A stretch of 64,000 nt of DNA from Mycoplasma parvum str. Indiana. GTDB lineage: Bacteria; Bacillota_I; Bacilli_A; Mycoplasmatales; Mycoplasmoidaceae. Positions 204 to 62,030 of this stretch are shown here, piece after piece; within the stretch, counting starts at the first letter, position 1, and every line of letters begins with the position of its first letter. The stretch lies in contig NC_022575.1 of NCBI RefSeq assembly GCF_000477415.1, forward strand, positions 186,001-250,000, written 5' to 3'. The notes under the pieces were generated by a model. It ran no database searches and was not told the DNA's origin. It was given only the letters and a program-made list of their open reading frames with translations. The position numbers and the translations under genes are program-made.

Positions 204-1710
204 ATGACTAAAAAATTATTTACTACTTTTACTGGAATTGGAAGTATTTTTGGGCTATCAATAGGTAATCACTTAAATCTTTTTTCTATTAATGAACTAA
301 ACAAAGATAACAACCTCTTTGTCGGGGGGGAGCCAAAGTAATAATAGATTTGTTTTTAATAATCAAAAAGCGAGCATTCAAAATAAAAAGAAAGATTCTA
401 AAAAAGAACAAGAATATAGCTTAGATAATTTTTGATTTAATGAATGACAATTTCAAAGTGAAGGGGCCAGTCAGCCTATTCATTTAATTACTAAAGATGG
501 TTTAATTAAAGAAATTTCTTCTAAAATTCACAGTCAAAAAGTAAGAAATTTATGAGATGGTATACAAATTGATAACAAAAATAAATGATTTGGCAACAGA
601 ACTATACCTTATTCTTCTGACAAATCTATTTATCCTTTTAAAAAAATAGAAAAAAATAGTTTTTTAAATATACAAGAAAAAATAAAAAATGTTATTTTGT
701 CATTAAATTATTTTCAGTTATTGAATCTAAGTAAATGATTTCAAGATTTACCTGAAAAAGAAAAATGTGAAATATTAGATATTTTTATAGATTGTCAGGA
801 ATTAAAACAACAAATAATAGGCAGTGGTTCTAAAAAGTTAATTAAAGATCATTTAAAAATTAATTTTGAAAAATTTAATAAATTAGCTTTGCAAAATTGA
901 GAAGAAAATTTTCCTAAATTTTCTGAAGTGATAGGCTCTTCAGGAGTTTTATATATTAGTAAATTGAAAGGATTTGAACAACAAGTTGGAAGTATTATTG
1001 ATAAATGAATTGAAGAAGAAATGCAAAGATTGAAAGAAGGCAGAAAAACAAAACCTCCAAAAATGAATGGAATTTATTTTCTTGAAAAATGATTATTAAG
1101 GGAAAAATTTGGAGATGGTTGTGCCAAATATAGAAGAGAAAGTAAAGATGAACAAATGGTTTTTGGTGAGTGTTTGATGGAAAATATGGATAATTTTGTA
1201 GAACAATCTACTAAGGAATGGGAAAAATATTTAATACCAAAGGTTGTAGATGTAGTTAAAGCTGGAACTGTAATAAAAAATATGCCAGTATTTGCTCCTT
1301 CTAAAAATTATTCAAAAATTAATTTAAAAAAAGAAAAATTATTTCCAAACGAATCTATTAACTGATCAATTTTTTCTTCTGAACTTCAGAAAAAAGTTCA
1401 CAAATCATTTAAAAATAATGGTTATTGAAAAGGAGTTTTAGATACTAGTTGTAGCAATATAACTAGTGAAGGATTGATTTCTTTGTTTGTAGGTCTTATT
1501 GCTGGCGATCCTATAGAAAAAAGTGGATGTTATGAATTTTTTAATAATTTGATTTTTAAGGCCGGAGAAGAAAATAAAAGATTATGTCTTTTTGAAATTC
1601 CATCAATTAATTCTTATATACAAGAAAGTCAATTATTAGGTATTTTTAATATGTCCAGTTGAAAAAAGGGAAATAAATTTTGGGGTAAATGTGCTGATTT
1701 TGGACTTTAA
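204..1710 (+). CDS. Family A surface-type protein (A2), phase-variable, OFF in this sequence
   Basis: ATG at 204 opens a hydrophobic N-terminus (MTKKLFTTFTGIGSIFG), a likely signal peptide or anchor, and reads 40 codons to a run of seven G (324-330). In the current frame translation stops at 342. The frame that starts at 331 is then open, with TGA as Trp, for about 460 codons to TAA at 1708-1710 and carries the family A C-terminus (CLFEIP, GNKFW). Six or nine G would join the two parts into a protein of roughly 500 residues. No usable ATG precedes the tract in the downstream frame, where a stop sits at 298. The long intact reading frame argues for a reversible OFF state rather than decay. Function is unknown; export to the cell surface is inferred from the N-terminus. 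Confidence 0.75.
324..330 (+). repeat. G7 homopolymer, phase-variation tract of A2
   Basis: Seven consecutive G, placed just after the hydrophobic N-terminus. Runs of G this long are otherwise almost absent from this AT-rich window. Loss of one G or gain of two restores the downstream frame. Confidence 0.8.
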
Positions 1711-2661: not shown

Positions 2662-3696
2662 ATGAATTTAAAAAATAAATTATTTATTTTTTCTTTTTTA
2701 TTTGTAGGAGTTAATTTGTCTATAATTCCATTTTTATTTTCGAATATTAAACAAAATTTAAGCTCTTTTAAATTCTTGGGGGGGGCATTCATAAATCCAG
2801 CTTTTGATAAACAAATTAATGAAGTTTTAAATATTGGTTCAAATAAAGTTGAACAATTAAAAGATAAAAGTTTAAATAATCTTGCAATAATTCCCCTCGG
2901 GAAGTTAGAAAAACAAAATTTAGTTTTTCCGTCAGTTGAAACGGGAGAAAAAGTTCTTGAATCTGTTCAAAAAATTTCTCAAGAAATTGAAAAAGAAAAA
3001 CTAGTTAAATCCATTGAACAAGATTATGAAAACACATTGAAAAAAGCAAAATCAGGTTTAGAAAATTCTTCCTCTAAATTGCAAAAAGCCGAAGAATCTT
3101 TTAAGAATTTTATGCAAAAGGAAATTGTTTCGAGTTCAGGCAAAAGAACAAAAAGATCGACTGATAAAAATGAAAAGAAATTTTCTCTTAGTACCGCAGA
3201 AAGAGAGGTTTTAAAAAACTATTATGAACAATTTTTCAAATTAAAGGAAAAACAAGAAGAATTAAATGGCAAATTGAAAGAAGCAGAAGCTCCAAATAAA
3301 GGTACAAAAAGCAAAATGATTACTTCAAATAATTTTCAAAATTATAAAAAAGTATTGAAGGCTTTAAGTGATATAGGATGGGAAAAAGAACTTAATTGAA
3401 ATAATTTATTTACACAATGAAAAAATAAACCTTGAAGTCATGACAATCCATTCTATTTTTTATTGGATCAAGACATTTGAAAACTTTGAATAAATTCGGC
3501 TAAATCAAGAAAGGAAGCCATTGATGAATATCTTTCAGTGTGATACAGGAGATTATGTGGCGTAATGTTAATAGGAGTGAGTACATGTTATCCTGAATTG
3601 GAAGCATTAAAGAAAATGGAAGAAATAGCTAAATCTAATGTAGAAATAAATATTGTGGAAAAACTATTAAGGGAGATGGGCAGAATAAATTCTTAA
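2662..3696 (+). CDS. Family B secreted or surface coiled-coil protein, phase-variable, ON
   Basis: ATG start; 344 residues with several TGA Trp codons in the last third. Residues 1-25 are hydrophobic (FIFSFLFVGVNLSIIPFLF), a likely signal peptide or anchor. A run of eight G at codons 39-41 encodes Leu-Gly-Gly and is in frame. Residues about 95-225 are rich in Lys, Glu and Gln and look like an extended helix or coiled coil. The C-terminal part holds a Trp-rich stretch and two Cys (RLCGVMLIGVSTCYPE). Changing the tract by one base in either direction gives a stop within about a dozen codons. A hairpin terminator follows. No recognised domain; surface location is inferred. Confidence 0.75.
2778..2785 (+). 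repeat. G8 homopolymer, phase-variation tract of family B
   Basis: Eight G starting at the third base of codon 39 (2776-2778), just after the hydrophobic N-terminus. In frame here (ON). Confidence 0.8.
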
Positions 3697-54950: not shown

Positions 54951-56696
54951 ATGTCCAAGTTTATAAAAGGTTTAGGAATTGGAGAAGGGGTAGTAGTTGG
55001 AAAGGCTCATATCTTTAAAAAAGAAGAGTTAAATATTCAAAAAGAATCAGATTCTAATCCTGAAAATGAATATTATTTATTTCAAAGTGTGGAAGAGAAA
55101 GCTATTAAACAAATTGATAATTTAATAAAGTTGGCATCTGAAAATATTTCAGAAGAGAAAGCTGATATTTTCAGAGCTCATCAAGAATTATTAAAAGATG
55201 AAGAGATGAAAAATGAGATTAAAAAAGTATTATTTGAAGAAAATTGCTCTTTAGCTTGGGCAATTACTTCTGTTTATGACAGATATATTGAAATATTTGA
55301 AAAAATGCCAGACAAATATTTCAGGGAAAGAACTTCTGATTTAAAGGATTTGAAGGAAAGATTATTAACAATAGTTTTGAATGTGGATAAGAATAGTTTG
55401 AATGATATCGATAGTGAGTGTATTCTATTAGCTAATGATTTAACTCCCAGTGAAACTTCATTATTGAATAAAAAATATATTAAAGGTTTTATTACTGAAA
55501 TAGGCGGCGTAACAAGTCATTCAGCAATTATGGCTAAAACTATGGGCTTTCCAGCTATAGTTTCCGCTCAACAAGTAACTTCATTAATTAAGCAAGATGA
55601 GATTGTAGCTTTAGATACTAAAACAGGCCATGTTTACTATGATTTTCAAGGAAAAGATGATTCTTTATTAAAAGAATTTCAAGAAAGAGAAAAAAGATTT
55701 GAAGCAACTAAAAAAGTGTGAGAAGAATATAAATCTAAAGATTGCAAAACATTAGATGGAAAAGAAATTAAGATTCTTGGGAATATTGGACAACCTTCGG
55801 ATATGCCTAAAGTTAGAGAATTTGGGGGTAGAGGAGTAGGTCTTTTTAGAACTGAGTTTTTATATATGAAAAGCTCAGAATGGCCTTCTGAAGAAGTTCA
55901 ATTTGAAGCTTATAAAAATACTTTAATTGATATTAGCGATACAGAATATTTAACAATTAGAACATTAGATATAGGGGGGGATAAATCTTTAGATTATTAC
56001 GATTTTCCTAAAGAATTGAATCCCTTTTTGGGATATAGAGCTATAAGGATGAGTTTAAAGGAAAAAGAAATTTTTATTGCTCAATTAAGAGCTATCATTA
56101 GAGCAAGTTCTGATGGAAATATAAAAATTATGTTTCCAATGATTACTATTTATGAAGAATTTATTGAAGCTAAAGCTTTAGTTGAAGAGGTGAAACTTCA
56201 ATTAAAAAATGAAGGTTATAGTGTTCCTGTGAATATACCTATTGGATTAATGATTGAGGTTCCTTCAGCTGCATTAATTTCAGATAAATTAGCTAAAGTA
56301 GCTGATTTCTTTTCTATAGGATCTAATGATTTAATTCAATATACAAATGCGGTAGATAGAATGTCTGAAAATGTTAATTATCTTTATCAACCTAATTCTC
56401 CAGGAATTCTAAAGTTGATAAAAATGGTAGTTGAATCTGCAAAGAAAGAAAATATTGATGTAAGTGTTTGTGGTGAAATGGCTAGTTCACCCCATTCCGC
56501 AGTTTTATTAGTAGGTTTAGGTATAGAAACTCTTTCTATGTCAGCCCCTTCTATACCAGTTATTAAAAGAGTTTTAAATAATTTGAGGTTAAGTGAGATG
56601 AAAGAATTAGCTGAAAAAGCATTATCTCTCTCTACAGAGGCTGAAATATTCAAATTAACTACTAAATTTTTAGAAGAAAGCGATATACTTCTTTAA
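54951..56696 (+). CDS. ptsI: Phosphotransferase system Enzyme I
   Basis: 581 residues, ATG start. First step of PEP-dependent sugar uptake. GGVTSHSAIMAKTMGFPAIV has the phosphorylated His; FGGRGVGLFRTEFLYM, MFPMI, FFSIGSNDLIQYTNAVDR and CGEMASS complete the PEP-binding domain. In RTLDIGGDKSL the Gly codons are encoded by GGG GGG G, a G7 run (55974-55980). Between gatB and family H. Confidence 0.96.
55974..55980 (+). repeat. G7 run inside ptsI
   Basis: Seven G encode the conserved DIGGDK motif of Enzyme I, in frame. The codon choice GGG GGG in an AT-rich gene is unusual; a one-base slip would truncate the enzyme after about 340 residues. Confidence 0.5.
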
Positions 56697-56717: not shown

Positions 56718-58289
56718 ATGCCTCTGTCAAGAGGGATTAGCTTAATAGGATCTCTTTTGTTGGCTCCTGCAGGATTCGGGACTGCAGCTCATTTTTTGAA
56801 ATCTTATTACCGAGACATTATGAATTTTGAAGGAGCTTATTTCATAGTTGAAGCGATTACTGAGTTGTACGATAAAGGTATTCCAAAAATACCAGAAGAG
56901 GTATTGAAGAGTGCTAAAGAAATTGCAGAACAATTAGAGAAGGAGAAACAAAGTAAGTCACAAAATGGAGTTAATAGTAGTAGTTCTGCATCTTGAACTC
57001 TTTCTAGTTCTTCAACCAGCTCTAATGGTATTTCTCAAGATCAAACTCAAGGAGAAGAAATATTTAGCAATGGCGGAAAGAAAAAATATTGATGTCGCCT
57101 ATTTGATTACACAGTATCAAAAAACGGGGGGGGCCGAATTGAAAATGTAAAGCTTCAATATGATCCTTATTGTGATTTATTTAAGATAATTACAATAAAT
57201 TCAAATAGTACTAGTGAATTACAAAAAGCTTCTAAAAATGAAAATTTAGAAGATTATTTAAATCCACAAGTTTTGGATATAAAAGAAATAAATCAAAAAA
57301 TTAATAAATTGGAAGAAGCTAAGTTAAAAAGTAATTCAGAGTTTCAAAAAGGGGCTTTTTATGTTTTAAAAGTAGATAAAAACAGTATACCTAATATTAA
57401 TGTCAATACAATAATTGAATTATCGGAGGAGCCAAAAAATTTAAGTGAGAGATTTTTAAAACAAAAATATCATAAAAAAATAGCTGCTTTACGAGTTAGA
57501 GCGCCTCTTATTGGTGATATTTCCCAAAATGTTAAGTTTGAATTTAAAAATTCCTATCCTTCTTCTATGTTGTTAGTTCAGGAATTAAGTGATAACGTTG
57601 ATTCTATTTTAATATCAGATAGTAATTTGCAAGCACAAGCTCAAGAAAAAGTTCCATATTATTATTTAAAGCGGCAAAATGAAAATTCACATTTAAATAA
57701 AGGGAAAGGATTAGATAATTTAAATGTTTTAAATATATGAGAATTTCCTAAATTTTTAATAGGTAAATCTTCTTCACCTAATTTAAATAAGCTAGACTTA
57801 CGTTTTGCGGAAAAAATAGATTTAGATAAATTTGGTAAAAAAGATGAATTAAAGAGTTGATGGGGCGATATAACTAAATGGTTTTGGAATTCAAATCCTT
57901 CAAATCAAGGAAATTATTACTTAATTAGAACAAGTGATAGTTATTGGGATTATAAAATAAACGAGAAAATAGATTTATTTAAAGTTATGAAGCCAAAAAA
58001 TGGTAAGAAAGAAGAGGAAAAAGAAAAAAATGATGAAAAGAAATTATCTAGCTTTAAGATAGTTGCCGGAATAATTTCACAACTTCCTTTATCGACAAAA
58101 TGTAGTCTTGAGAAATTTAATTGAAAAGATAAATTAGCTTATCCTGAAATATTTTTAATGGAGATTGAGAGTAAAAAAAATAAAAATTCATTAAATCCTG
58201 AAGATAGATTTTGCGATGAAGTGAATAATAGCATTCCCCCTTCTTCCATAATTCTTATGGGATATAATTTGTCAGAAAAAACAGCTTAA
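56718..58289 (+). CDS. Family H surface-type protein (H1), phase-variable, ON
   Basis: 523 residues, ATG start 21 bases after ptsI. N-terminus GISLIGSLLLAPAGFGTAAH is a likely signal peptide or anchor, followed by a nearly invariant block (FLKSYYRDIMNFEGAYFIVE), a Ser/Asn-rich linker, a Cys/Trp segment (YWCRLFDYTVSKN) and then G8 (57126-57133, Gly-Gly-Gly-Arg) in frame at codons 137-139. Downstream: VLDIKEINQKINKLEEAKL, FQKGAFYVLKVDKN, KYHKKIAALRVRAPLIGDIS, SYPSSMLLV, NYYLIRTSDSYWDYKI, PEDRFCDEVN and PPSSIILMGYNL. No known family. Exposed at the surface by inference. Confidence 0.72.
57126..57133 (+). repeat. G8 homopolymer, phase-variation tract of H1
   Basis: Eight G encoding Gly codons between the N-terminal and main regions; in frame. 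Losing or gaining one G meets a stop soon after. Confidence 0.75.
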
Positions 58290-58334: not shown

Positions 58335-59899
58335 ATGTCTTTTTTAAAAGGTGCCAGTTTAATAGGATCTCTTTTGTTGGCTCCTGCAGGATTTGGAACT
58401 GCAGCTCATTTTTTGAAATCTTATTACCGAGACATTATGAATTTTGAAGGAGCTTATTTTATTGTTGAGGCTATTACTGATTTATATGATAAAGGAATTC
58501 CAAAAATACCTGATAGCGTTTTAAAAGAAGCAAAGAAGATTGCTGAAGATCTGGAAAGAGAAAAAAGTAAGAATAGTCAAAATGGAAATACATCAAATTC
58601 AAGCTCGGGGGGGAGGGTTCTTCCGAAAGTTCAAAAGTTAATGATAATAATGAACAAAAACAAGAAATTTTTGGAGACAAGAATGGATTTTGATGTAGAT
58701 TTTTTGATTACACTGTCTCTAAGGAAAAATCAGGAGAAATTGAAAATGTAAAACTTCAATACGATCCTAACTGCCAATTGTTTAATTTAATTCCTATAAA
58801 GCCGCAACAAAACAAAAATTTAGTGGAATCTTCCTCTGAAATGAAATTAAATTGGAATTCTGAAAATTATTTTAAGCCGCAAGTTTTAGATATAAAAGAA
58901 ATAAATAACAAAATTAATAATTTAAAAAATGTTGAATTAAAAAATAATTCTGATTTTCAAAAAGGAGGATTTTATGTTTTAAAAGTTGATAAGAATAAAA
59001 TACCTAGCATTAGGGTTAATACCCAAATTGAATTATCTGAAACTCCAAAAGAGAGAATTAGATTTCCAGAGCAAAAATATCATCAAAAGATAGCAACTTT
59101 AAAAGTTAAAGCTCCTCTTGTCGGCGATATTTTGCAAAAAGTTCCATTTAAATTTGATGTTTCTTATCCTTCTTCTATGCTATTAGTTAAAAAAATTAAT
59201 CATGATAGCTCTTTAGTGAAAACATCAGGAGAAAAAAATTCGTCAAATAATAAAGAAAAGATTTATTCTTATTTTTTGAAAAATAACAATAAGACAAATC
59301 AAGACTTAAATTTACAAAAAGTAGGTGTTTTGGGAATATGAGAATTCCCTGATTTTTTAACTAGTAGTAAATCTTCTACATCAGATTTAAGTGGTTTAGA
59401 TTTAAGATTTGCAAAAAAAGTTGATTATGCTAATTTAAAAGGAAATAGTCATAATAATAACAGTTCTTGGTTAGATATTATTCTTGGCAAAGAAAAAAAT
59501 AAAGAAGGCTATTACTTAATAAGAACAGATAATAGCTACTGAAACTACAAAATAAAAGACAAAATAAATTTATTTAGAGTCGAGAGGAAAGAAAATCAGG
59601 AAAACCAAACAAATTCAGAAGACGCTTCAAAACAAGAAGAAAATTTAACTAATTTTGAAATTGTTTCAGGAGTTATTTCTCAAATTCCTTTATCACGGAC
59701 ATGTAGTCTTAAGAAATTTACTATTCAAGATGAATTGAAAAATCCAATAATAATTTGAGAGAAAATTCAGAATAAAGTGAGTACAAAAGGAACAATAGAT
59801 CCTGAGGAAAAATTTTGTGAAGAAAATAATGAAAATATTTCCCCTTCTACAATGATTCTTATGGGATACAATTTAAAAAATAATAAGATTACTAAATAA
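58335..59899 (+). CDS. Family H surface-type protein (H2), phase-variable, OFF in this sequence
   Basis: ATG 58335 reads the family H N-terminus (GASLIGSLLLAPAGFGTAAH) and invariant block, then a Ser/Asn linker to a run of seven G (58607-58613). In the present frame it ends at a TAA at 58749-58751. One more G joins it to a frame open to TAA 59897-59899 with all H1 blocks (NGFWCRFFDYTVSKEKSGEI, VLDIKEINNKINNLKNVEL, FQKGGFYVLKVDKNKIPSI, KYHQKIATLKVKAPLVGDIL, SYPSSMLLV, PEEKFCEEN, MILMGYNL). The in-frame product would be about 521 residues, essentially as in H1. Intact downstream codons argue for a switchable state. Confidence 0.75.
58607..58613 (+). repeat. G7 homopolymer, phase-variation tract of H2
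   Basis: Seven G; eight would be in frame with the rest of the gene. It sits about 45 codons earlier in the gene than the H1 tract. Confidence 0.8.
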
Positions 59900-59907
59900 T
59901 TTTTTAA

Positions 59908-60144
59908 ATGTCACTCTTTTTTAAAGTTTTCAATATTTTTGGATTAATTTCTTCTGTAAGTGTTGCTACTGTATTAACACAAATGCCTGCACCTATTAAA
60001 AAAACTGTAGAAGAAGGTTCTAAAAATAATAAGGGAATTTATAGTGTTAGACATCCAACAGAGCAACATTTGACAGAGAAGGAAAAGAAAGAAAAAGAAG
60101 AGGAGGAGCAAGAATGCTTGGATGATGTTTATTCAGTCATCTAA
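59908..60144 (+). CDS. Small secreted-type acidic protein, 78 aa
   Basis: ATG start, eight bases after H2. N-terminal hydrophobic segment (FNIFGLISSVSVATVLTQM), a likely signal peptide or anchor, then a charged tail rich in Lys and Glu (EKEKKEKEEEEQECLDD). No paralogue in the window. The N-terminus has the same flavour as those of the surface families. Probably in one transcript with H2. Function unknown. Confidence 0.5.
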   Translation: MSLFFKVFNIFGLISSVSVATVLTQMPAPIKKTVEEGSKNNKGIYSVRHPTEQHLTEKEKKEKEEEEQECLDDVYSVI

Positions 60145-60164
60145 TTTAATATAAATTAGTTTTT

Positions 60165-60184
60165 TCTCCCCCTTTTGGGGGAGA
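60165..60184. terminator. Bidirectional terminator between the 78-aa gene and RNase J
   Basis: TCTCCCCC, loop TTTT, GGGGGAGA: a perfect eight-base stem with a T run upstream on the plus strand, that is downstream on the minus strand of A runs. It lies between convergent stops. Confidence 0.65.
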
Positions 60185-60233
60185 GGAAACTCTCTTATCT
60201 AATTATTTATTATTTCTGTTTTCTATTTATTTT

Positions 60234-62030
60234 TTATTCTTTGATATAAGAGTTAGCATTTATAGAGTTTTCTCATAAATTATTTTGCTTTACTTCTTCC
60301 AACAAAATAATAATTTTAGGGACTTTATGCCCCTTTTTATTGAAAAAATCAGTAATTATAGAAGTATTTGATGAGATAATATCTTCTTTTTTGAGAGTTA
60401 CTGAAGAATTAGCGAGCAACTCTTCTGTATTTTTAGAAATCATTCTACTTAAATCTTTAAATATTTCTGAAGATAAAGAAAAAGACAAAGATCCAATAGT
60501 TGTTACTGGAGAAATGGAAAATATAGTTTTTGTTTCTAAGTCTAATGTAATAGAAACAACTAATAATCCATTCATGGCTAATTTAGTTCTTTCATTTAAA
60601 GTTTCTTTTCCATGATCAGTTAATTTATTTTCCATTACAAAATAAGGGAAGTTAAATTTTAAATGTTCTTCCTCTTCAGCTTTACTCACTACTCTATTCA
60701 ATATTTTTAATTTTTCTCCATTTCTCAAAATGAAAATATTGTAAGAAGGTACTATTTTCAATTCAGAAATATTTCTTTTTAAGTCATGTAGCATTTTCTT
60801 TTCTCCATGCACTGGAGCCAAATAAGTTGGAGAAATTAGAGAAATTAATAATTGCTGTTCTAGTTTGGTTGCATGGCCTGAAGCATGTATTTTGCATTCA
60901 GGTGAATTTAAAAATAATTTGCATCCAGATTTATAAAGTCTATTGACTAATTCATTAACTGCTTGTTTATTCCCTGGAATTACATTTGAAGAAAAGATTA
61001 TATTATCTGAAGGCTTTAATTGTATTAAAGGATGTAATCCTTTAGAAATATTATTTAAAGCTGAAGATTCTTCCCCTTGAGAGCCAGTACAGATAATAAG
61101 TAGTTTTTTGTCAGGAATTGTATTCATTTCTTGTGGGGTAATAAATACATTTTTTAAATCATTTGTATTTAAAATTCCTGCAGTTTGTGAGCATTTCAAA
61201 CTGCTTTCTATAGATCTACCAAAAACTACTATTTTTTTATCAGCAGAATTAGCTAATTTAACTATTTCTTCAATTCTACCTAAATTGGAAGCAAAGAAAG
61301 TAATAATTATTCTTCCCTCAGAAGAAGAAATAATATTCTTCAATTCTGAAATAATTGTCGCTTCACTTTCATTAAATCCAGGTTGAGCGGCTGAGGTAGA
61401 TTCACACAGCAATAAATCCACTTCTCTTCCCCCAATACTTATTAATCTTTGAAAAGATTTGCTTTCAATTTTGTTTTTTAAATCAAATCTGAAATCTCCA
61501 CTAAAAACTAAAAATCCATTAGGAGTAGAAATAGAAAATCCAAAAGAATCAGGAATTGAGTGATTTACAGAAAAAAAATCAAAAGCAAAATATTTTGTGA
61601 AATAAATAGAGTCAGAATCATAAATTTCCATTTTAGGTATTCTTTCAATTTTTAATTCTTCTAATTTTTTCTTAATTAATTCCATTGCTAATGCTGGAGC
61701 ATAAATAGTAGGTATTTCTAAAGAAGAAATTAAATGAGGAACTCCTCCAATATGATCTTCATGTCCATGAGTGATAAATAATCCAGTTATTTTCTTTTGA
61801 TTTTTAATAAGATAATCCAAATTTGGTATCTCACCTGTTACTCCAGGTTGAGTTAATTTATTTCCAAATTTAATTCCAAAATCCATAATTACTATTTCAT
61901 CTAAATGTTCAATACAATAGCAATTCTTTCCTATTTCTTCTATCCCTCCTATAGAGAAAAAATAGGTAGGATCTTTTTGTTTATTTCTTCTACATTCAAA
62001 AATATGTTGTTCTATTGTATGTAAAGCCAT
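60234..62030 (-). CDS. rnjA: Ribonuclease J
   Basis: 598 residues, ATG start. Metallo-beta-lactamase/beta-CASP ribonuclease central to mRNA decay and maturation in low-GC Gram-positives and mollicutes. FITHGHEDHIGGVPHL carries the HxHxDH metal site; SVNHSIPDSFGF and FSGDFRFDL complete it; beta-CASP motifs CESTSAA and HASGHA..EQQLLISLI with APVHGEKK follow. A final 13 residues extend past a TGA (Trp) near 60273. Minus strand, before the sigma factor gene. Confidence 0.94.

What the first reader, a model, noticed from the sequence alone, without database searches (positions are those of the whole stretch)
58335..59899. H2: second OFF gene, one G short of its ON paralogue
H1 (G8) and H2 (G7) are neighbours with the same downstream blocks, so the pair gives an internal control: one ON, one OFF. 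The tracts lie at different codons (about 138 and 92), meaning that the tract arose or moved independently after duplication, a sign of selection for the tract.
Basis: partly seen in the sequence, partly recalled or inferred. Interest (0 to 1): 0.7.

Follow-up and report, generated by a model that had tools for sequence, protein, structure and literature searches.

The report
Poly-G on/off switch in hemoplasma gene
In a tiny blood bacterium of pigs, one of two neighbouring copies of a probable surface-protein gene is switched off by a run of seven Gs that puts its two halves out of frame; it is one of about 90 such G-runs in a genome-wide on/off switching system that looks real but is of a known type.

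Summary
The window is Mycoplasma parvum str. Indiana (564,395 bp; TGA=Trp). H1 (56718-58289) is an open 523-codon gene with G8. H2 (58335-59899) is its tandem copy. It carries G7, breaks off as a 138-aa product, and continues for 427 open codons in another frame. The tracts begin at codons 137 and 91, about 40 residues apart in the alignment.

Five sister hemoplasmas have one copy of this gene at the same place (ptsI - H - small ORF - rnj), without any G>=7 tract; a sixth lacks the gene. So duplication and both tracts are M. parvum-specific.

The pair belongs to a larger set: 90 G>=7 tracts, 72 exactly G8, mostly in paralogous families. All seven genomes of the genus carry 90-197 such tracts; most other genera carry 0-15. 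In one shared family, five M. suis paralogues with G9 are in frame; three with G8 or G10 are not.

Best reading: H2 is the OFF state of a slipped-strand contingency locus recently added to a genus-wide poly-G repertoire. Switching itself is not shown. The mechanism is known; I found no report of it in hemoplasmas in the open papers searched. Unexplained: G8 runs sit in a Y-G8-C-R context regardless of reading frame.

The parts
54951..56696 (+). ptsI (PTS enzyme I), upstream neighbour; has an in-frame G7 at 55974-55980 inside its conserved LDIGGDKS motif
   Evidence: TIGR01417 E=1.6e-195; tract; relatives have G5 at this site
56718..58289 (+). H1: 523-aa protein with hydrophobic N-terminal segment, Ser-rich linker and Cys-containing C-terminal region; in frame (ON)
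   Evidence: code-4 translation; ortholog alignment
57126..57133 (+). G8 tract of H1 (context C-G8-C), codons 137-139, in a variable loop of the protein
56742..56842 (+). 101-bp block of H1 with 2 mismatches to H2 58359-58459; probable gene-conversion tract covering the N-terminal anchor
58335..58751 (+). H2 as read from its ATG: 138-aa truncated product (about 91 homologous codons plus out-of-frame tail)
58607..58613 (+). G7 tract of H2 (context C-G7-A-GGG) in the Ser-rich linker; frame break
58616..59899 (+). H2 remainder, 427 open codons in the third frame, homologous to H1 and to orthologues
59908..60144 (+). 78-aa ORF with hydrophobic N-terminus; counterpart kept at this place in relatives, including the one that lacks H
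60158..60191 (+). terminator-like hairpin; none on the + strand in the gaps ptsI-H1, H1-H2 or H2-small ORF, which suggests one transcript (inference)
60234..62030 (-). rnj (RNase J), convergent downstream neighbour
   Evidence: NF047419/TIGR00649

Best explanation
H2 is the OFF phase of a phase-variable (contingency) gene. Shown: a G7 tract lies in a linker between an N-terminal hydrophobic anchor segment and a long conserved C-terminal region, and puts the two out of frame, while the tandem copy H1 has its own tract and is in frame. Inferred: slipped-strand mispairing changes the tract length at replication, so a population holds cells with H1 and H2 in every on/off combination; H2-OFF cells make only a short stub of the anchor; the full proteins are surface-exposed, and switching helps evade the host. 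The pair is a recent addition, specific to M. parvum, to a genus-wide set of poly-G switches in paralogous families.
For: Frame relation and intact post-tract frame. Switch point located at the tract (posterior 0.78). The post-tract part of H2 still shows coding constraint like that of H1: pairwise dN/dS about 0.52; changes polarised with M. suis fall 41/37/62 on codon positions 1/2/3 in H2 and 56/37/63 in H1. Genome: 90 G>=7 tracts, 72 exactly G8, in about 12 paralogous families, with G on the sense strand and a mix of in-frame and out-of-frame members. Genus: 90-197 tracts in 7/7 genomes, mostly 0-15 in other genera. Direct comparative support from a shared family: tract at the homologous site just after the N-terminal segment, G9 in five intact M. 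suis paralogues, G8, G8 and G10 in three out-of-frame ones, G9-G11 in 'Ca. M. haemominutum'. A second M. parvum pair at one homologous tract position has G8 in frame and G7 out of frame (184757/186324).
Against: No length variation of the H2 tract itself has been observed: one genome, one consensus. H2's tract context (followed by A) is background-like. In M. parvum most tracts are exactly G8 even in out-of-frame genes, which argues against very fast free slippage. Orthologues in five species lack the tract, so switching of this gene is not conserved. Surface location is inferred only from the N-terminal hydrophobic segment (maximum Kyte-Doolittle 1.5 over 19 residues, borderline for a membrane helix); the structure model was unusable.
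Confidence: 0.72

Rival explanations
1. H2 is a decaying duplicate (pseudogene): after a tandem duplication one copy took a frameshift in a G-run and is being lost.
For: Only M. parvum has the second copy; M. parvum has a strongly reduced genome; a relative of M. wenyonii size lacks the gene altogether; H2's tract is short and atypical in context.
Against: 427 codons after the tract are free of stops and show codon-position constraint similar to H1; the only break lies exactly in the longest homopolymer; the genome is full of similar genes at homologous tracts in both states. A very recent pseudogene would look the same.
Confidence: 0.16
2. The tract acts by recoding: RNA polymerase or ribosome slippage on the G-run yields some full-length H2 and some truncated H1, without DNA change.
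For: Tracts occur in all three codon phases (25/11/9 among in-frame G8 genes), so any DNA- or RNA-level process is possible; the constant G8 length is compatible with a maintained slippery site; slippage rescue at poly-A tracts is discussed for Buchnera (PMC2831843).
Against: Homologous tracts differ in length (G8-G11) between paralogues and species, with frame following length, which fits DNA slippage; a fixed slippery site would keep one phase. Strong rG:dC hybrids disfavour transcript slippage (general knowledge).
Confidence: 0.07
3. G7 is a sequencing or assembly error and H2 is really in frame.
For: The rest of H2 is intact; in-frame genes of this genome mostly have G8.
Against: Illumina HiSeq 2000 at about 1,000x coverage (PMC3869333), where a 7-base homopolymer is not a usual error; several other genes are out of frame at G8 and G9 as well. 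The DNA came from an uncultured population, so G7 is probably its majority allele (inference).
Confidence: 0.05

Closest known systems
Vaa adhesin phase variation of Mycoplasma hominis (poly-A tract, A8 expressed, A7 not; cited in PMC2831843 from Zhang and Wise 1997)
   Same: Mycoplasma; one homopolymer inside the coding region near the 5' part; eight bases in frame, seven out of frame; surface protein
   Different: Poly-A rather than poly-G; a single gene rather than some 90 tracts; switching measured there, not here; no sequence relation tested
Poly-G/C contingency genes of Campylobacter jejuni (29 loci with tracts of 7 or more in NCTC11168, PMC4965091)
   Same: AT-rich genome with many intragenic poly-G tracts, mixed ON and OFF states in one genome
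   Different: Different phylum and gene types; tract lengths there are commonly longer (general knowledge), here sharply at 8
H. pylori pldA (7-nt poly-G tract, insertion of a G inactivates; PMC2831843)
   Same: Short intragenic poly-G frameshift switch
   Different: Enzyme gene with G7 in frame; single gene
Hemoplasma paralogous gene families (M. parvum: 141 CDS in 38 families, PMC4423628; M. haemofelis phase variation suggested from tandem repeats, PMC3196708)
   Same: Same organisms and gene class; antigenic variation proposed
   Different: In the two M. parvum/comparative papers I found no mention of homopolymers, repeats, frameshifts or phase variation (term searches); the M. haemofelis paper refers to tandem repeats, mostly intergenic

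Membership tests
Slipped-strand (simple-sequence) phase-variable contingency locus | Homopolymeric tract in the coding region, longer than chance allows | tested here: met
   G7/G8 in H2/H1; 14 hits vs 0.42 expected in the window; genome spectrum G6 22, G7 15, G8 72, G9 3
Slipped-strand (simple-sequence) phase-variable contingency locus | Tract length decides the reading frame | tested here: met
   H2 split across frames at the tract; M. suis family G9 in frame 5/5, other lengths out of frame 3/3
Slipped-strand (simple-sequence) phase-variable contingency locus | Length differs between relatives at the homologous tract | tested here: inconclusive
   Met for a sister family (G8-G11) and for the pair 184757/186324; not for H1/H2, whose tracts are not homologous, and orthologues have none
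Slipped-strand (simple-sequence) phase-variable contingency locus | Length variants coexist in a population and switch reversibly at high rate | not testable with these tools
   One consensus genome; no reads and no second isolate held
Slipped-strand (simple-sequence) phase-variable contingency locus | Expression follows tract length | not testable with these tools
ptsI-linked hemoplasma protein family of H1/H2 (unnamed) | Sequence homology and synteny ptsI - H - small ORF - rnj | tested here: met
   M. suis-size, 'Ca. M. haemolamae', 'Ca. M. haemominutum', M. ovis-size genomes and (split over two contigs) G002
Any Pfam, NCBIfam or PDB family | Profile match above the curated cut-off | tested here: not met
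   No match for H1 or the H2 remainder above cut-off

The most novel reading that the evidence does not exclude
The hemoplasma G8 tracts are a distinct, maintained DNA element (Y-G8-C-R) and not merely slippery homopolymers at mutational equilibrium: they have a sharp length mode at 8 with a trough at 7 in all seven species, a fixed flanking C irrespective of codon phase, and appear de novo in unrelated positions (as in H1, where an equal-length stretch was replaced), so some process writes or preserves them.
Probability: 0.15. Interest if true: 0.72.

Novelty: new member of a known kind. Interest (0 to 1): 0.5.

Why it matters
Hemoplasmas persist in blood for long periods and cannot be cultured; their large families of hypothetical paralogues have been proposed, without a mechanism, to provide antigenic variation. 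A repertoire of 90-197 poly-G tracts per genome, with tract length matching frame in a shared family, gives a concrete and cheap test: sequence the tracts from blood samples over time. H1/H2 show a gene that is constant and tract-free in sister species being drawn into this repertoire after duplication. It also warns annotators that 'split' hemoplasma genes at G-runs are probably phase-OFF alleles rather than pseudogenes.

Tried and rejected
2) Domain or fold assignment of H: Pfam, NCBIfam and PDB sequence searches gave nothing; AlphaFold model from 4 sequences had mean pLDDT 39.7, so no fold search was run. 4) Programmed ribosomal frameshifting at one slippery heptamer: rejected as a general model because in-frame tracts occur in all codon phases. 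5) Coding explanation for the flanking C: rejected for the same reason. The depletion of T after G-runs (3/75) could follow from GnT hypermutation (PMC12344412), but that does not explain C over A. 6) Operon/terminator hairpin between H1 and H2: only an A/T-rich weak fold, z=-1.1. 7) Promoter scan: no more hits than shuffles. 8) Strain comparison: collections hold one genome per species, so tract polymorphism within a species could not be tested.

Full report
WHAT IS THERE. The genome holding the window has a single contig of 564,395 bases, the published size of Mycoplasma parvum str. Indiana, a hemoplasma of pigs regarded as non-pathogenic, which reads TGA as tryptophan (PMC3869333). The window is bases 186001-250000. 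With code 4, ptsI (54951-56696) is followed on the same strand by H1 (56718-58289), H2 (58335-59899) and a 78-aa ORF (59908-60144), then a terminator-like hairpin (60158-60191) and the convergent rnj.

THE TRACTS. H1 is open for 523 codons across G8 at 57126-57133. H2 read from its ATG ends after 138 residues; its homology to H1 continues after the G7 tract (58607-58613) in the third frame to 59899. A codon-usage model puts 78% of the posterior for the switch at 58600-58618. The window has nine tracts of G>=7 (14 overlapping hits) against an expectation of 0.42 hits.

HISTORY OF THE PAIR. Homologues were found only in the same genus, in 5 of 6 relatives. Two are named by their records: 'Ca. 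M. haemolamae' Purdue and 'Ca. M. haemominutum' Birmingham 1. From genome length and my own knowledge, 742,431 bp is M. suis Illinois, 702,511 bp M. ovis Michigan and 650,228 bp M. wenyonii Massachusetts. In the four relatives where the whole locus was read there is one intact gene between ptsI and the small ORF/rnj, and its coding strand has no G-run of 7 or more; in G002 the gene is split over two contig ends and the parts seen have none in the gene. The M. wenyonii-size genome has ptsI, the small ORF and rnj but no H. H1 and H2 are closest to each other (about 55% identity overall, against 30-37% to any other). The duplication and both tracts are therefore specific to the M. parvum lineage as sampled. 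The two tracts are not homologous: the downstream alignment starts 40 residues apart, H1's tract lies in a loop of variable length, H2's in the Ser-rich linker. A block of 101 bp near the 5' ends has two mismatches, both in third codon positions, while most of the rest is 40-82% identical, which suggests a recent gene conversion of the N-terminal anchor.

IS H2 DEAD OR SLEEPING? The part of H2 after the tract has no stop in 427 codons, pairwise dN/dS with H1 about 0.52, and, polarised with M. suis, H2-specific changes of 41/37/62 by codon position against 56/37/63 for H1. Its protein-level constraint has thus been like that of the in-frame copy for most of its history. This excludes an old pseudogene, not a very recent one.

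THE LARGER SYSTEM. The genome has 90 tracts of G>=7: 72 G8, 15 G7, 3 G9, and 22 of exactly G6. This is not a decaying tail: in all seven genomes of the genus G8 far exceeds G7 (72/15, 131/11, 55/6, 120/20, 93/19, 91/10, 120/13), and totals are 90-197, while most of the 53 genomes sampled from other genera of the family have 0-15 and a few have 28-52. About two thirds of the tracts lie in long genes on the sense strand; by a mechanical ORF test 45 are in frame and 22 are not (two of the 22, at 135203 and 410384, are doubtful calls because the gain in ORF length is 10 aa or less). Tract-bearing genes fall into about 12 families of paralogues. In the best-covered family the tract sits 38-45 codons after the ATG, behind a hydrophobic segment. 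In M. suis five members with G9 are in frame and three with the same start but G8, G8 and G10 are not; 'Ca. M. haemominutum' members have G9-G11. A second M. parvum pair at one homologous tract position shows G8 in frame and G7 out of frame (184757 and 186324). Two further G8 genes encode DUF31 mycoplasma peptidases. These facts are what phase variation by slipped-strand mispairing predicts.

MECHANISM. Shown: frames and tract lengths. Inferred: replication slippage alters the tract; H2 in its present state yields a 138-aa stub carrying only the N-terminal anchor; H1 makes the full protein; the two copies switch independently. No terminator-like site was found on the + strand between ptsI and the small ORF, so frame switching may be the main control on genes transcribed together with ptsI (inference). 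That H is on the surface is likely but unproven: it has a short hydrophobic N-terminal segment, low-complexity linkers and few matches elsewhere. No family or fold could be assigned.

WHAT DOES NOT FIT. G8 runs are preceded by T or C (65/72) and followed by C (54/72), then A or G (58/72); shorter runs are followed mostly by A or T. In the listed G8 runs of 'Ca. M. haemolamae' 97 of 100, and of 'Ca. M. haemominutum' 44 of 50, are followed by C (counted by eye). The preference appears in all three codon phases, so it is not a coding effect. Depletion of T after the run might follow from the known GnT-to-G hypermutation (PMC12344412), but the excess of C over A is unexplained. H1 has the standard context (C-G8-C); H2 does not (C-G7-A). 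In H1 the tract replaces an equal-length stretch of H2 (AACGGGGGGGGCCGA against AAATCAGGAGAA in the same gap-free block), which is not a simple slippage expansion.

COMPARISON AND VERDICT. Homopolymer frame switching is well known: M. hominis Vaa (A8 on, A7 off) and H. pylori pldA are summarised in PMC2831843, and C. jejuni poly-G loci in PMC4965091. The genome paper of M. parvum and the comparative paper on hemoplasmas contain none of the terms phase variation, repeat, homopolymer or frameshift; the M. haemofelis paper proposes phase variation from tandem repeats. So the mechanism is known, and the occurrence in hemoplasmas at this scale seems undescribed in the open literature searched. H2 itself is a plausible but not the strongest example: its tract is short, its context atypical, its orthologues tract-free. 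Confidence that it is an OFF allele of a phase-variable gene: 0.72.

Noticed in passing
window 2778-2785 and about 70 other G8 tracts of the genome (e.g. G000:C1:169834, 171020): G8 runs have a strong Y-G8-C-R flank in all codon phases, and a sharp length mode at 8 with a trough at 7 in all seven species of the genus; not explained by coding or composition.
   Followed up: partly
window 324-330 (G000:C1:186324) and G000:C1:184757: A better-matched ON/OFF pair than H1/H2: same tract position, G8 in frame and G7 out of frame, 43% identical downstream.
   Followed up: partly
G000:C1:176691 and 323620 (L019:8261-10252 +, L021:6832-8283 -): Two G8-tract genes encode DUF31 mycoplasma peptidases (PF01732, E=3e-38 and 7e-25), the domain family that to my knowledge includes mycoplasma immunoglobulin proteases; both in frame here.
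   Followed up: no
window 56742-56842 and 58359-58459: 101-bp nearly identical 5' block in otherwise diverged H1/H2: probable gene conversion of the N-terminal segment.
   Followed up: partly
window 55974-55980: In-frame G7 inside the conserved LDIGGDKS motif of ptsI, where relatives have G5; an essential-looking gene with a tract, useful as a control for background slippage.
   Followed up: no
L034 (G005:C1:66500-71200): The 650,228-bp relative has ptsI - small ORF - rnj without any H gene, so H is dispensable in the genus.
   Followed up: yes
G000:C1:415243-415258: Back-to-back C7/G7 palindrome (CCCCCCCTAGGGGGGG) in an apparently intergenic stretch.
   Followed up: no
G010, G019, G043, G064, G007: A few genomes of other genera in the family also have 28-52 G>=7 tracts, so poly-G repertoires may have arisen more than once.
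   Followed up: no
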